From the NCBI GenBank assembly GCA_009760855.2, contig WPIO01000024.1, forward strand, positions 4,612,501-4,676,500: a stretch of 64,000 bases of DNA, in the 5' to 3' direction. This stretch comes from Cristatella mucedo (Eukaryota; Bryozoa; Phylactolaemata; Cristatellidae). Positions 1,104 to 61,661 of this stretch are shown in pieces. The stretch's first letter is position 1; each line of letters begins with the position of its first letter. The position numbers and the translations under genes were made by a program. Under the pieces are notes generated by a model, which saw only the letters and a list, made by a program, of their open reading frames with translations, made no database searches and had not been told where the DNA came from.

Positions 1104-1307
1104 CCCTTTAGTATCAGATTCACAGACAGTGATTGCCGGCTGTGGCTGAACGTCGGCTCTTCTGGATACGCAAAACACTTGTCAACCCTGAAGCTCAAAT
1201 CGTAGTCCTGAGCGTGCATTTCCAGCAAAACATACAAAGGAGAGCTTTCTTTCACTGGGTCACTTGCTAGATCGCCATTGCAGAGGACATCAGGACATAG
1301 TCGGGTG
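1104..1307 (-). CDS. Gene B ZP domain, exon 3 (start of ZP-C)
   Basis: This exon starts the C-terminal half of a zona pellucida domain. Read on the minus strand it has a TTTTCAG acceptor, starts in phase 2 and ends in phase 2 before GTATGA. The hallmark is a DPVKESSPLYVLLEMHA stretch matching the ZP pattern of a small residue, LYV and alternating hydrophobics, followed by LSFRVDKCFAYPE, where the Cys and following residues match the CWATP position of ZP-C. There are two additional cysteines early in the exon (LCPDVLCNG). It follows exon 2 after an intron of only 138 bp. It matches the 46.3 kb exon of gene A in phase and position (204 against 189 bp). The final ZP exon is not in the window, so the gene is cut by the left edge. 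ZP domains polymerise extracellular glycoproteins; the specific role here is unknown. Confidence 0.82.
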
Positions 1308-1445
1308 CTGAAAATTGATAAGCAAAATCAAGAAAGATATCAACCAAAACATTGGGTAACAATTCTAAACTTTAATTTGTATTTATACTGAAAAAAATTA
1401 AATGTTATATCGCTCGCTGAAGTTCGTTCAGGATCGTGCACTCAC

Positions 1446-1648
1446 GCAAAATTGATGGCTCCAAAACTGGCTGGATTAGTAATAATTGTAACCGGCACCG
1501 TCTTTACGGAAGCAGATGCTGCACTTTCTCTGTCGATGACGCATGAAAAACGAATCCCTAATTCAGAAGTGAATTTAATGGAAATACTGTCTTGCTCATT
1601 TTCCACGTAAATAACTGAGTTGCTATATGTGATGCCTCTGGCGTCTTC
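1446..1648 (-). CDS. Gene B ZP domain, exon 2 (second half of ZP-N)
   Basis: The exon lies behind a pyrimidine-rich CCCTTTTACACAG acceptor. It begins in phase 0 and ends in phase 2 at GC|GTGAGT, 203 bp in all. The peptide begins EDARGITYSNSVIYVENE, a close match to the ZP-N linker in which a tyrosine precedes an N-x-V strand, and continues with GIRFSCVIDR, the conserved F-S-C strand carrying the fourth ZP-N cysteine (normally paired with Cys1). The rest alternates hydrophobic and polar residues as expected for the end of the immunoglobulin-like ZP-N fold. The corresponding gene A exon at 48.2 kb has the same 0-to-2 phases, which supports both models. No stop falls inside the exon, and the frame closes soon after the donor. 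Confidence 0.88.
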
Positions 1649-1874
1649 CTGTGTAAAAGGGAGGGGCAGTTAAAGTCAACGTCCCTCATTACCGAGCATG
1701 AAACATATCATGATTTGTGGAGAAATAGCTACGTACATGTCATTCCGACTACAACGACAAGTCAATAAGTGCAGTGATTGGTTGAATAGTTTTTAAAGGA
1801 TTTGCCTGCCAAGAATCTGACAGTTGCTTTACAAGACAATCCTAATGCTTAGCTCAGAAGCCTCCACAGCTAAT

Positions 1875-1980
1875 AATTTTGGTAATAATAATAACAATTT
1901 ATAATAATAATTAATAACTTATAATTATTAATACTAATTAATAATAATTTATAGTAATTTATATTATTAATAATTTATAG
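1875..1980. repeat. AT-rich simple repeat in a gene B intron
   Basis: About 105 bases made almost wholly of AATAATT and TTATAAT units, inside the intron between ZP exons 1 and 2. Confidence 0.85.
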
Positions 1981-2460
1981 TCGAAGCCTTAACGCCCCAA
2001 TTAAGTAATATAAACGCTGACTTGCTAACATGCATCTAAAAGTTCTTCTCCTGCCTCTATCCTATGGGATTAATAAACAATAATTTACGTTGAAAAACTA
2101 GTAAAAATGCCAGGAATACTGGGTTCATAATCTGGATAATTTGGAACGGATTTTTGTGGAAGGGCAGTGAGCTATGCACCTCCGTAGTATGCCACTGCTG
2201 CAGTACAGTAGAACATATATCAGCTGCCATTTTTTACTTTTGAACGATGACACCCTCAAAGCCCAGAGTCAGGCGAGGCAATTGTTCTATGCCATTTGGA
2301 TTTAAAAATATTTTTAGGAGTATATGTATATATAGGGCAAATATAATGTACCGCATGGCGTGTATATCCTGGTTTGCTGCGAACAAACTTCAAGACACGT
2401 TGTCTACAATACTTGGAAAGGTAAGTGTCAGCACTGTGGTAGCAGAACCGTCCATCCCTC

Positions 2461-2590
2461 CTCACCTCTCTCTCTCTCTCTCTCTCTCTCTCTCTGCATA
2501 TGTATATTACGCTTTCTCTTTCTTTCTCTTTATCTCTCTCTCTCTCTCTCTCTTTTTCTCTTTCTCTCTCTCTCCTTCTCTCAATCCCTT
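2461..2590. repeat. (CT)n microsatellite in a gene B intron
   Basis: Two (CT)n tracts separated by a short T-rich stretch, within the 1.2 kb intron between gene B ZP exons 1 and 2. Leucine/serine-repeat ORFs across it are artefacts. Confidence 0.95.
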
Positions 2591-58631: not shown

Positions 58632-58974
58632 CTCTGCCTTAAACAGCATAACAAATACAATCGAATTACAGTACTTTCTTATTCTTTCTAGTACAAATAA
58701 GGTTTACATTTTAGAAAGCCATCGTTTTTTGGTAATTTTATTTGACATTAGTATTCGAATGAAATGCAATGATTACACACGAATCTGGTTGCCGAAATTT
58801 ACTTAGAGGCATATAACATGATAGACATTGATATATCGAAATTGGATACTCCCTGGAAATATGCGAGGGAATGACTTTCTAATGAAAACTGCAGTTAATC
58901 TTGTAAAACGATCCAGGTCTGTATTAGAATGGATATAGTGTGGAAACTGAATAAAACTAGGTAACACTAATTAT

Positions 58975-59335
58975 AGAATGTTCTAGGTACTTTACATAAG
59001 GTGCACAGCTCATTTAGTTACATGACCATTCGTTGTTGTCTGCCAGTGTTAGCTGGAATAGGCATATAAAGAAAATTCATCAGGATTGATCATATGCGGC
59101 CACTCACATATATTTTGTAGTCTATTTTACGCATATGGTTCCAGTCTATTTTCAAATTCTGTCGAGGCAGGGAATGACGTTGTGCAAGGGGAAAGTGAGT
59201 TTCACGCTGTAAAAGCATACAAACAATAGGTACAATCCAAAGGATGTAATTTTGTTCGAGGAACAGCTAGCCGACAAGAGTCAGAATTCGGCTCTGTGTG
59301 AAGCTAAGCATCGGAGTCAAGCAACTAATCCATTA
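58975..59335 (-). mobile_element. Ancient LINE alpha 3' end
   Basis: TTCTAGGTACTTTACATAAG and, further on, GTCGAGGCAGGGAATGACGT with AATCCAAAGGATGTAATTTT match alpha in reverse; strongly eroded. Confidence 0.6.
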
Positions 59336-59944
59336 AGGACATCGGGTTTCTATCGTACTGACAAAATCCAAAAATACGTATGACACTTGTTAACCATACC
59401 TAATCTTTTTAACTTGGAGGTGCGATTTCATTTTATATTTAATAAGGTTTTACGCATAGTTTTTATATAACTTGTTCAAGTTATTCAGTGACCAAGTGAT
59501 TAGCTTTATTAGAGCTTGTAACTACTTTTCAAAGCCGTCTGTTATAAATAATAAGCAAGCTCTTTGGATGGTGTCTTTATTCAGAGGAAGTAATTAGTAT
59601 GAATATAATTTTGATAGCATTTCACTATGCTCTATACATGTTGATATTTTAGTGCCGTCCAAAATTGATTGCATGAAACGGCTTGATGCTTTATAAACTT
59701 TTCCAAAAAAGCAATAAGAAGAGATTTAGTTATCATTTGAGCAACTAAATGTGTATGCACGGCACGTGTGAAGAGATCACTCTTTCATCATCCCAAAAAC
59801 TAAAGTTGCTAGAAAGTGCAAGCTATCAATCAGCTATAACTTCATATCTGGATTCCGTAAATTGTGTCCTCAGTTTCCACTATTGGACACAGTCTCACGT
59901 GGATATTTAGTAAATTATCAAGCTTAATTTCCCAGTCACTGAAC
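59336..59944. other. Intron, no feature recognised
   Basis: Gene A intron between the fibrinogen exons; nothing identified. Confidence 0.45.
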
Positions 59945-60832
59945 ATGAAATAGAGCTGACTCTGCCAGGACTTCTCCTGTTGAATCTGCACGAATTCTAG
60001 GTGTCATGTTCCAAAGAGACGTTTCGTTAGACGACCGCATCACCTGCACAATCAAGTCGGCCTACTTTCAGCTATATAAGATTGCTAAATTTCGCGGTTT
60101 TATAGATATCAATACAACATCTAAGTTGGACCATGCATATGTGAAATCTCGTCATGACATCTGTAACTCACTGCTTGCTGGCCTACCTGGGTGTGCAATC
60201 AGTCACTTCCAGCTGGTGCGAAACTCCAAAGCTAGGCTTGTCTGTCTTGACCTTCACAGTTGCCACATCATACCAATTCTTGCCGACCAGCACAAGCTGC
60301 CAGTCGAGCAATTGATTGATTTCAAGATCTTGTCACTCACTTTTATGTCACTTCATTCTTTGGCTCCAGCATACCTGTCAGATCTACTCCCCACCAGACC
60401 CGGCATCGTACCTTCCGCTTTTCGGAAACTAACTATTACCTATACCTCATTCAAACCTCAAATCCTTCGGAGGCCATGCATTGAGTTCGCATGCTCCCAA
60501 AGCCTGGACTCATTCCAAACTTGCATCACGACCGACATCCCCTGGCTTGACCACATTTAAAAAGAAAAAAAGCACCTATTTGTGAGAGAATTTAGTGGGT
60601 TCCTGTGATTTTCCATTTATGTGCTTACGACTGCTAACACTGTGCATGCTGCTAATAACCACACTTGCATGCTGCCCATGTGCATGTAACCCCTAATCCT
60701 ATTATTTATGTTGTTTATCAAGCGTGGTAACACTCACAATTCGATCGTGTTTCATTAGCAGCCAATGTAAAGCGTCTAGAAATATATTGACTTCTCTGAG
60801 AGTGCTTTATCAGGTGTATTAATAATATTATG
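59945..60832 (+). mobile_element. LINE alpha, C-terminal coding region and tail
   Basis: From GAGCTGACTCTGCCAGGACT (motif D-E spacer) through the C-terminal domain (SLAPAYLSDLLP) and 3' UTR to the tail AAGCGTCTAGAAATATATTG and TTATCAGGTGTATTAATAAT. Inserted between the two fibrinogen exons. Confidence 0.87.
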
Positions 60833-61163
60833 AATACATTAACCATCATGAGGTTTATTTAAAGGATGCAGGATTACTGAGCTAGGAATGCAGAAGGAAA
60901 ACCATTAAAGTGCAGCTTTCGAGGAATACAGCTGACTAGCAAAAAAGTTACTAAACACTTAACCCAGAGTTACCCAGCAAATACCGGAACTCTATCAAAT
61001 TTCTTTCGACAGCGAACATCTAAAAATTGGTAGTTAACGAAAAAGCCAGCTTTACTTAAGACTTTCACCATCGCACAAATTAGTTCATTCACTGTAGTGT
61101 CAAACATGTCCTTTATCTTAAGGATTTCACCGCAAAGACATTGAGAGTAGTCCAGGTACGTAC
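60833..61163. other. Intron, open frame following fibrinogen exon 1
   Basis: The reading frame of fibrinogen exon 1 continues on the minus strand to about 60970, but a donor at 61163 and the second exon at 58.6 kb make this intronic. Confidence 0.6.
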
Positions 61164-61661
61164 CAGCACAGTTGTAGTCAGCTAATCCGTCGTTGTCTTT
61201 GTCGTAGGTAGAGAATTTAACCGGATTCCTAATCTCGCGACTCCCCAAGCACCCGCTTGTGTTTCTCATGTCCCCGGCGTTTCCGGTGTATTCTTCCATG
61301 GACAGGCTGTATCCTTCGGATGCTGATCCCACTGTGACACCAGAATACTCAGCATACTTCGAAACGTTATTGAAAGTTGTAAGCGTTATCTTCAGAGTCA
61401 CTTTCTGATGTCTAGTGATGGCATGCAGCTTTTCATTGCCGAGCCAAAATTCACTGCCCAAGCTTCCAAAGCCGGTTTCATACTCGTGCCATGTGCGGTT
61501 AAAGTGCAGTCGGTGGTTTTTTCTTCGCATGACAGTCAACCAGGGACCATCGTCTGAAGTGGTATCGCACCAAACGGTGAATACTTCTTTACCAGTAATA
61601 AGCGAATACGTTCCGTCCGAACTGGCCTCTGCACACGACGATATTAAGCTCGACTTTACAT
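61164..61661 (-). CDS. Gene A fibrinogen C-terminal domain, exon 1
   Basis: A 498 bp exon, phase 1 on both sides, with acceptor CGATTGCAG and a GCTG|GTACGT donor. Nearly the full fibrinogen-like fold is present in order: SCAEASSDGTYSLI, VFTVWCDT, PWLTVMRRK, FNRTWHEYETGFG, EFWLGNEKLHAIT, AEYSGVTVG, GYSLSMEEYTGNAGD and KFSTYDKDNDG, then N-C-A at the splice. The D-K-D-N-D sequence is the fibrinogen calcium site. Such domains bind acetylated sugars or proteins in ficolins, tachylectins and mollusc FREPs. The frame stays open beyond the donor for about 64 codons, but the second exon at 58.5 kb supplies the true continuation (W-W-Y motif). The start of the gene lies upstream and was not found. Confidence 0.92.

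What the first reader, a model, noticed from the sequence alone, without database searches (positions are those of the whole stretch)
1104..61661. Tandem ZP paralogues with exchanged N-terminal recognition modules
The ZP modules of A and B share exon borders and phases (1-0, 0-2, 2-2) and even the two residues E-D at the start of exon 2, yet the sequences are far apart, and the heads are unrelated (FBG against SRCR-EGF). This looks like duplication plus exon shuffling of phase 1 modules onto a fixed ZP tail. Such clusters are candidates for rapidly evolving recognition systems such as gamete interaction, allorecognition or mucosal defence. The role is inference.
Basis: inference. Interest (0 to 1): 0.9.

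Follow-up and report, generated by a model that had tools for sequence, protein, structure and literature searches.

The report
Tandem double-ZP fibrinogen-SRCR matrix genes
What looked like two neighbouring zona-pellucida genes with swapped heads is most likely the back half of one gene and the front half of its tandem copy, each gene encoding one secreted mosaic protein with two zona-pellucida modules around a fibrinogen domain.

Summary
The exons, splice phases and the E-D start of ZP exon 2 are real. "Two ZP paralogues with exchanged heads" is most likely a window-edge artefact. Fetched flanks show the alternation B-A-B-A-B-A on one strand. "B" (SRCR-EGF-EGF-ZP) has a signal-peptide exon but no end exon that I could find; "A" (FBG-ZP) has a stop but no convincing start. 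Spliced together, each B+A unit gives one open frame with the same phases: three 15-exon tandem genes, signal-SRCR-EGF-EGF-ZP-FBG-ZP, 974-1019 aa (one exon of gene 3 is hidden by N). In the window, A is the 3' half of gene 2 and B the 5' half of gene 1; FBG is internal, not a head. Both ZP modules match solved ZP structures by profile (TGFBR3; GP2, uromodulin), though not Pfam cut-offs. In capped genome searches close matches of both ZP modules lay only in this array. No annotated protein with this order was found in two searches. Gene 2-gene 3 dN/dS is 0.15-0.40, so no sign of positive selection. The models predict a secreted product without membrane anchor; a matrix or egg-coat role is inference. 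No RNA data were available.

The parts
27951..28010 (-). gene 1 exon 1: start codon and signal peptide (MVGMTKFALPLILCIALRAK), phase 0 donor
   Evidence: same kind of exon in genes 2 and 3
25555..25652 (-). gene 1 SRCR exon 1 (phases 0-2)
   Evidence: tblastn with gene 2/3 exons, best E 2e-4; borders
19266..19561 (-). gene 1 SRCR exon 2 (2-1)
   Evidence: Pfam SRCR E 3e-4 but 21.4 bits, below the 26.1 cut-off; paralogues; borders
13312..13443 (-). gene 1 EGF 1 (1-1)
   Evidence: Pfam FXa_inhibition over cut-off, just under it in the full product (32 vs 33.4 bits); borders
3159..3281 (-). gene 1 EGF 2, calcium-binding type (1-1)
   Evidence: Pfam EGF_CA over cut-off, just under it in the full product (26.5 vs 27 bits); borders
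2893..3071 (-). gene 1 first ZP module (ZPa), exon 1 (1-0)
   Evidence: profile match to TGFBR3 ZP-N
1446..1648 (-). gene 1 ZPa exon 2 (0-2), starts E-D
1104..1307 (-). gene 1 ZPa exon 3 (2-2); ZPa exon 4, FBG and second ZP of gene 1 lie outside the window at window coordinates -9249 to -32800 (loci L006-L009)
61164..61661 (-). gene 2 FBG exon 1 (1-1); gene 2 exons 1-9 (signal, SRCR, EGF, EGF, ZPa) lie outside the window at 95882 to 67073 (loci L010-L013)
   Evidence: Pfam Fibrinogen_C E 1.7e-42 on exon 1 plus part of exon 2
58467..58637 (-). gene 2 FBG exon 2 (1-1), ends in a GTAGGT donor
   Evidence: found in 3 of 3 genes; completes the Pfam FBG match to 20-218 of 221
54463..54665 (-). gene 2 second ZP module (ZPb), exon 1 (1-0)
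   Evidence: profile match to uromodulin
48179..48369 (-). gene 2 ZPb exon 2 (0-2), starts E-D
46274..46462 (-). gene 2 ZPb exon 3 (2-2)
37665..37836 (-). gene 2 ZPb exon 4 with stop codon after a basic RKR end; no membrane segment
   Evidence: found in 3 of 3 genes; hydropathy

Best explanation
The window lies across two copies of a tandem array of three paralogous 15-exon genes on the minus strand. Each encodes one secreted mosaic protein: signal peptide, SRCR, EGF, EGF, ZP module (ZPa, betaglycan-like), a Ser/Thr-rich linker, fibrinogen-like domain (FBG), second ZP module (ZPb, GP2/uromodulin-like), ending at or soon after a basic motif with no membrane anchor. 'A' is the back half of gene 2 and 'B' the front half of gene 1. 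Shown by sequence: exon order, phases, open frames, paralogy and the ZP, FBG, EGF and SRCR identities. Inferred: that one transcript spans both halves, and the function. Most likely the ZP modules build or anchor the protein in an extracellular coat (mucus, cuticle or egg envelope), where FBG and SRCR-EGF bind glycans or other proteins. Anatomy about 0.85, matrix role about 0.5, any specific gamete or immune role about 0.15.
For: Alternation B-A-B-A-B-A on one strand in 264 kb. One open frame with 0 internal stops in 3 of 3 genes: 1019, 979 and 974 aa; in gene 3 ZPb exon 1 was not found, its stretch holds 5000 N, and it was filled with N. Phases agree at all 14 junctions of genes 1 and 2, and at the sides that can be seen in gene 3. 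The last B exon ends in a phase-1 donor in 3 of 3 genes, and the blastp alignment of genes 2 and 3 ends there. The first A exon has a phase-1 acceptor and no start codon with room for a signal peptide before it in frame. A scan for signal exons found the B signal exon in 3 of 3 control stretches (3, 5 and 11 rows in all); in the B-to-A intervals it gave 0 rows in genes 1 and 2 and 7 in gene 3. No membrane-like segment in the three models. Joining exons brings gene 2 SRCR over cut-off (34.7 vs 26.1 bits) and completes FBG. ZP identity. The B-A intervals (5.4-7.9 kb) are within the range of the other introns; the gaps between genes are 9.7 and 12.5 kb.
Against: No RNA or protein evidence. No orthologue with the whole architecture was found to confirm the fusion. 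A phase match between two phase-1 modules is weak evidence alone, since such modules are usually bounded by phase 1. A short or unusual signal exon for A, or a last exon for B, could have been missed: two of the 7 rows in gene 3 have the right phase 1; DNA of genes 2 and 3 still aligns past the ZPa exon 4 donor and at two further places in that interval; and of 8 open-frame matches between genes 2 and 3 there, most repeat-like, one is a 20-residue block at 65602 (E 2.9e-4) that I did not explain. A conserved block near 91059-90491 of gene 2 (581 columns, 62%) in the signal-to-SRCR interval was left out of the models without a full test. Gene 1 SRCR is below the Pfam cut-off. A GC donor had to be assumed at ZPa exon 2 of genes 2 and 3. 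PF00100 did not detect these ZP exons in the genome search.
Confidence: 0.8

Rival explanations
1. Each unit is a pair of separate genes: B (SRCR-EGF-EGF-ZP) and A (FBG-ZP). The pair, not one gene, was duplicated three times.
For: Same exon data. B and A each end on a ZP module, as ZP proteins commonly do (recalled). No transcript evidence. Some conserved intron sequence and one unexplained 20-residue open block lie between B and A of genes 2 and 3; two phase-1 signal-like rows in gene 3.
Against: No signal-exon row for A in genes 1 and 2 although the same scan finds 3 of 3 B signal exons. I saw no membrane exon that recurs after ZPa exon 4 in the three genes (by eye). Phase-1 donor in 3 of 3.
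Confidence: 0.13
2. One reading: two ZP paralogues whose N-terminal modules were exchanged by exon shuffling onto a fixed ZP tail.
For: Shared ZP exon borders and phases; the two ZP sequences are homologous.
Against: Three copies with the same module order and no copy with another head seen. Close ZPa or ZPb matches were found nowhere else in the genome in capped searches. ZPa and ZPb look like the two ZP modules of one gene.
Confidence: 0.04
3. Rapidly evolving gamete- or self-recognition locus (egg-coat FBG as in Ciona v-Themis, or VERL-like ZP). This concerns function and can hold beside the one-gene anatomy.
For: FBG and ZP in one predicted protein; tandem copies; gene 1 only 46% identical to gene 2. 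Fibrinogen-like v-Themis sits on a ZP-protein egg coat (PMC8849226, passages).
Against: dN/dS 0.15-0.40 for gene 2 vs 3; only three copies; no allele or expression data.
Confidence: 0.12

Closest known systems
Uromodulin and GP2 (ZP filament proteins)
   Same: ZPb profile matches GP2 (E 1e-7) and uromodulin (1.7e-5); EGF-type modules before the ZP (recalled); GP2 filaments are formed by the ZP module with a protruding branch (PMC12212870, passages including its abstract)
   Different: Here two ZP modules, an FBG between them, an SRCR in front, and no anchor in the models
Betaglycan (TGFBR3) ZP module
   Same: Best structural relative of ZPa (E 3.4e-13)
   Different: TGFBR3 is a membrane co-receptor with no SRCR, EGF or FBG (recalled)
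Abalone egg-coat ZP proteins (VERL/VEZP) and mollusc EGFZP shell-matrix proteins
   Same: Lophotrochozoan ZP proteins of extracellular coats, duplicated in abalone; EGF+ZP in EGFZP (PMC3567151 search listing; PMC13361971 passages)
   Different: No FBG or SRCR: the words fibrinogen and SRCR occur 0 times in the main text of PMC13361971. The EGFZP paper itself is not held
Ciona v-Themis
   Same: Fibrinogen-like protein on a ZP-protein egg coat (PMC8849226 passages)
   Different: Separate FBG and ZP proteins; [quoted passage not shown]
Amphioxus SRCR-VWA-FBG protein (P0055, 979 aa)
   Same: SRCR and FBG entries in one protein (Pfam list)
   Different: Has VWA and no ZP entry
Vertebrate ZP genes with two ZP modules (fugu, two alligators)
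   Same: Two ZP modules in one gene (PMC6262864, one passage)
   Different: Read there as recent lineage-specific duplications; fibrinogen and SRCR occur 0 times in that text

Membership tests
ZP-module proteins | Sequence match of the module to known ZP domains | tested here: met
   Profile vs PDB: ZPa TGFBR3 E 3.4e-13; ZPb GP2 1e-7, UMOD 1.7e-5. Pfam single-sequence scans were below cut-off and PF00100 missed these exons
ZP-module proteins | Four conserved ZP-N cysteines | tested here: inconclusive
   ZPa has four (C8, C37, C55, C96 of alignment A1, invariant in 3 of 3). ZPb shows only a first and a last in genes 1 and 2; gene 3 lacks that exon. The pairing pattern is recalled
ZP-module proteins | Furin-type site, then hydrophobic patch and anchor after the last ZP (order recalled) | tested here: not met
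   Basic ends RKR and RKK then stop in genes 2 and 3; RRRRRR plus an 18-residue tail in gene 1; no hydrophobic segment. PMC13361971 says such features vary among families
ZP-module proteins | Polymerises into filaments | not testable with these tools
   Needs expressed protein
FREP/ficolin-like FBG proteins | Complete FBG domain | tested here: met
   Pfam PF00147 142.7 bits, 20-218 of 221 in gene 2 and 149.1 bits, 17-219 in gene 1, two exons joined; gene 3 not scanned but both exons are present
SRCR proteins | SRCR match over cut-off | tested here: inconclusive
   Gene 2 met, 34.7 bits vs cut-off 26.1. Gene 1 exon 2 alone 21.4 bits, below, and no SRCR hit at E<=1 in the full product. Gene 3 not scanned
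Rapidly evolving recognition locus | dN/dS above 1 in recognition domains | tested here: not met
   Gene 2 vs 3 domain averages 0.15-0.40; comparisons with gene 1 saturated or nearly so. Single sites were not tested
Rapidly evolving recognition locus | High allelic polymorphism | not testable with these tools
   One assembly only
Tandem ZP paralogues with exchanged heads | Same ZP tail with different N-terminal modules in different genes | tested here: not met
   Three genes, same order SRCR-EGF-EGF-ZP-FBG-ZP

The most novel reading that the evidence does not exclude
A lineage-restricted matrix protein in which an FBG lectin-like domain is held between two different ZP modules, kept as three tandem genes with patchy sequence exchange. 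Such a coat could combine polymer and recognition domain in one chain, for egg-coat or mucosal recognition in an unnamed lophotrochozoan.
Probability: 0.2. Interest if true: 0.65.

Novelty: new variant of a known kind. Interest (0 to 1): 0.38.

Why it matters
It corrects a tempting evolutionary story: apparent head exchange between neighbours is most likely a window-edge effect of a tandem array. It also describes a domain order (SRCR-EGF-EGF-ZP-FBG-ZP) not found among the proteins searched. A protein that carries a fibrinogen recognition domain between two ZP modules would be a ready test case for how ZP coats present binding domains.

Tried and rejected
Rejected: exchanged heads (see rivals). 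An apparent Cys-rich frame at 50049-49753 is not among the conserved frames shown (whose output was cut in the middle). A conserved block near 174880 and 91000, between signal and SRCR exons, has open frames of 37-46 residues inside a longer stretch of alignable intron; I left it out, but did not test it for splice sites, so a further small exon there is not excluded. The missing ZPb exon 1 of gene 3 is most likely hidden by the 5000 N in that stretch.

Led nowhere: Rfam and tRNA scans of the window, 0 hits each. NCBIfam scan of 3 ZPa members, 0 families. Protein search with the ZPb region, 1225 candidates, none at E <= 1. Paper searches: ZP with FBG and SRCR terms, 0 papers; zona pellucida + fibrinogen-related + lophotrochozoan terms, 5 papers, listing only; abalone egg-coat terms, 26 papers, 10 listed; ZP domain + fibrinogen-like domain, 2 papers, both ascidian fertilisation reviews; two ZP modules, 4 papers. 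Five papers were opened by passages only. The genome-wide SRCR-EGF search did not complete. No structure prediction was run, because the products need exon joining and are not letter-for-letter translations of the window.
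Full report
WHERE. The window is G000:C166:4612501-4676500 of an unnamed 572 Mb animal genome. Its COX1 (contig C688, L040), read with the invertebrate mitochondrial code, is 96% identical to an unnamed metagenome protein. The named matches among the 120 listed of 7699 are at 81-85% and are mostly molluscs, with two nemerteans, one annelid and a number of insects. I read this as a lophotrochozoan without a close named relative; this is inference. The window also holds many reverse-transcriptase-like frames (named by recall) and long simple repeats.

CHECKING THE OBSERVATION. 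Pfam does not reach its cut-off for either ZP, so the ZP identity needed a stronger test. A profile of the three copies of each module (the third ZPb lacks one exon) was searched against solved structures. "B" ZP matched betaglycan TGFBR3 (E 3.4e-13 for the whole chain, mainly its ZP-N; three separate TGFBR3 ZP-C chains at 1.2e-4 to 3.2e-4) and "A" ZP matched GP2 (1e-7), TGFBR3 and uromodulin. A and B ZP also match each other (hhalign E 3.6e-5, probability 71.5, 18% identity) with exon 2 starts aligned.

THE ARRAY. I fetched 80 kb below and 120 kb above the window and searched the joined 264 kb with ten exons. In window coordinates, reading down the minus strand, the order is B (167.9 to 155.5 kb), A (142.9 to 123.8), B (80.9 to 72.3), A (61.7 to 46.3), B (19.6 to 1.1), A (-16.5 to -32.2). 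Blastp between minus-strand open frames of the copies (outputs cut) added FBG exon 2 and ZP exon 4 of both kinds, and, in genes 2 and 3, the first SRCR exon and the signal exon of B. In gene 1 the signal exon was found and the first SRCR exon. Genome-wide, the B ZP protein gave 10 candidates: 9 are in this array, and the tenth is elsewhere at E 4. The A ZP protein gave 8, all in the array. FBG had 29 matches at E <= 0.001: 6 are the array's exons, and 23 are elsewhere at 30-52% identity, the best at 2.6e-14, 11 of them on contig C177. The tool scores only its best candidates, so these are lower bounds. The SRCR-EGF search did not complete.

ONE GENE, NOT TWO. Spliced in order, B+A gives one open frame in all three units: gene 1, 28010 to -32800, 1019 aa; gene 2, 95882 to 37665, 979 aa; gene 3, 180542 to 108417, 974 aa with one exon unseen in a stretch with 5000 N. 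No internal stops occur. Junction phases are 0,2,1,1,1,0,2,2,1,1,1,0,2,2 in genes 1 and 2, and agree at the visible sides in gene 3. Splice borders are AG and GT, except GC donors at ZPa exon 2 of genes 2 and 3. The last B exon ends at a phase-1 donor in 3 of 3 genes, where the blastp alignment of genes 2 and 3 also ends. The first A exon starts at a phase-1 acceptor, and its open frame holds no start codon with room for a signal peptide before FBG. As a control, the signal-exon scan was run on stretches 5' of SRCR and found the B signal exon in 3 of 3, among 3, 5 and 11 rows. In the B-to-A intervals it gave 0 rows in genes 1 and 2, and 7 rows in gene 3, two of them in phase 1 and none with a counterpart in genes 1 and 2. 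Hydrophobic stretches exist in these intervals; by eye none recurs in all three genes. Beyond the signal peptide no model has a membrane-like segment. Joining exons raises gene 2 SRCR to 34.7 bits (cut-off 26.1) and completes FBG (20-218 of 221). In the full products the EGF matches are under their Pfam cut-offs (just under in gene 1), and gene 1 SRCR gives no hit at E <= 1. Poly-A-like signals follow the stops at 179, 281 and 93 bases in genes 1, 2 and 3, which is weak support for the 3' ends.

Against this: there is no transcript. Phase 1 on both sides is common for such modules. DNA of genes 2 and 3 still aligns past the ZPa exon 4 donor and at two further places in the interval. Of 8 open-frame matches between genes 2 and 3 there, most look like repeats or adjoin FBG exon 1, but one 20-residue block at 65602 (E 2.9e-4) is unexplained. 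No protein with the whole order was found to confirm it. The full-length protein search scored 7981 candidates and listed 67, all of EGF or FBG type, best 168 bits; none of the 67 carries a ZP entry in its Pfam list. A search with words from the ZPb region had 1225 candidates and none at E <= 1.

HOW THE ARRAY EVOLVED. Genes 2 and 3 are 76.5% identical, and gene 1 is 46% identical to both. dN/dS for gene 2 vs 3 is 0.40 SRCR, 0.19 EGF, 0.33 ZPa, 0.26 FBG and 0.15 ZPb without its first exon; gene 1 comparisons are saturated or nearly so. Synonymous distance is uneven: 0.18-0.28 in EGF, FBG and SRCR exon 1, 0.39-0.73 in the ZPa exons and 0.42 in the signal exon, and 0.78-1.24 in SRCR exon 2 and the ZPb exons. 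Patchy sequence exchange between copies would explain it, but unequal constraint and small exons are not excluded. A ZP gene elsewhere (L001, found by PF00100) has ZP-N and the start of ZP-C in one open frame, yet ends it at the same place with the same phase-2 donor (AACGG then GTGAGC) as ZPa exon 3 of genes 2 and 3. So the last ZP border is shared more widely, while the two inner borders are shared by ZPa and ZPb but absent from that gene. One gene is a small sample.

MECHANISM. Shown: a signal-peptide exon, the module order, and the lack of an anchor in the models. Inferred: ZPb, as in GP2 and uromodulin, could build or join filaments. [quoted passage not shown] FBG and SRCR-EGF would then be presented on a matrix. 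Against polymerisation: the furin-like basic end is followed by a stop or, in gene 1, an 18-residue tail, not by the usual hydrophobic patch and anchor (usual order recalled). ZPa resembles betaglycan, whose ZP binds ligand (recalled). Where the matrix is (egg coat, mucus, shell or cuticle) cannot be told from the sequence.

COMPARISON. FBG on a ZP-protein egg coat is known from Ciona v-Themis, but in separate proteins (PMC8849226 passages). Two ZP modules in one gene are reported for fugu and two alligators (PMC6262864, one passage). EGF+ZP shell proteins are known in molluscs (PMC13361971 passages). Egg-coat ZP proteins of amphioxus mostly carry LDLa and vWFA domains instead (PMC3543715 passages). 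Paper searches for ZP with FBG and SRCR terms returned no paper.

VERDICT. Real and well-defined tandem genes of an unusual mosaic, but most likely not head-swapped paralogues, and with no sign of rapid adaptive evolution in what could be tested.

Noticed in passing
genes 2 and 3, EGF and FBG exons (window coordinates 77587-77232 and 61661-58467 against 163431-163073 and 142954-139827): Synonymous distance 0.18-0.28 here (also SRCR exon 1) against 0.78-1.24 in SRCR exon 2 and ZPb exons: possible gene conversion between tandem copies.
   Followed up: partly
L001 (C676:235885-236100, minus): A separate ZP gene with ZP-N and the start of ZP-C in one open frame and the same phase-2 border as ZPa exon 3; a further open frame in the locus carries a furin-like KRRTR.
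   Followed up: partly
G000 C177 and C668: Further fibrinogen-like exons, 11 matches on C177 and 3 on C668, 30-45% identical to this FBG.
   Followed up: no
C166:4375626-4376390, C83:2826-3735, C549:2641741-2642010, C299:634220-634540: COX1-like fragments outside the mitochondrial contig C688, probably nuclear copies of mitochondrial DNA.
   Followed up: no
window 7902-9200, 28996-30066, 39776-40852 (+), and 6884-7699 (-): Retrotransposon reverse-transcriptase-like frames (by recall) inside and between the genes.
   Followed up: no
window coordinates 139800-126650 (loci L016-L017): 5000 N in the stretch that should hold ZPb exon 1 of gene 3: assembly gap or withheld sequence.
   Followed up: partly
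window coordinates 65602 (gene 2) and 146906 (gene 3), between ZPa exon 4 and FBG exon 1: A 20-residue open block, 60% identical between genes 2 and 3 (E 2.9e-4), inside alignable intron DNA; could be a small exon or chance.
   Followed up: no
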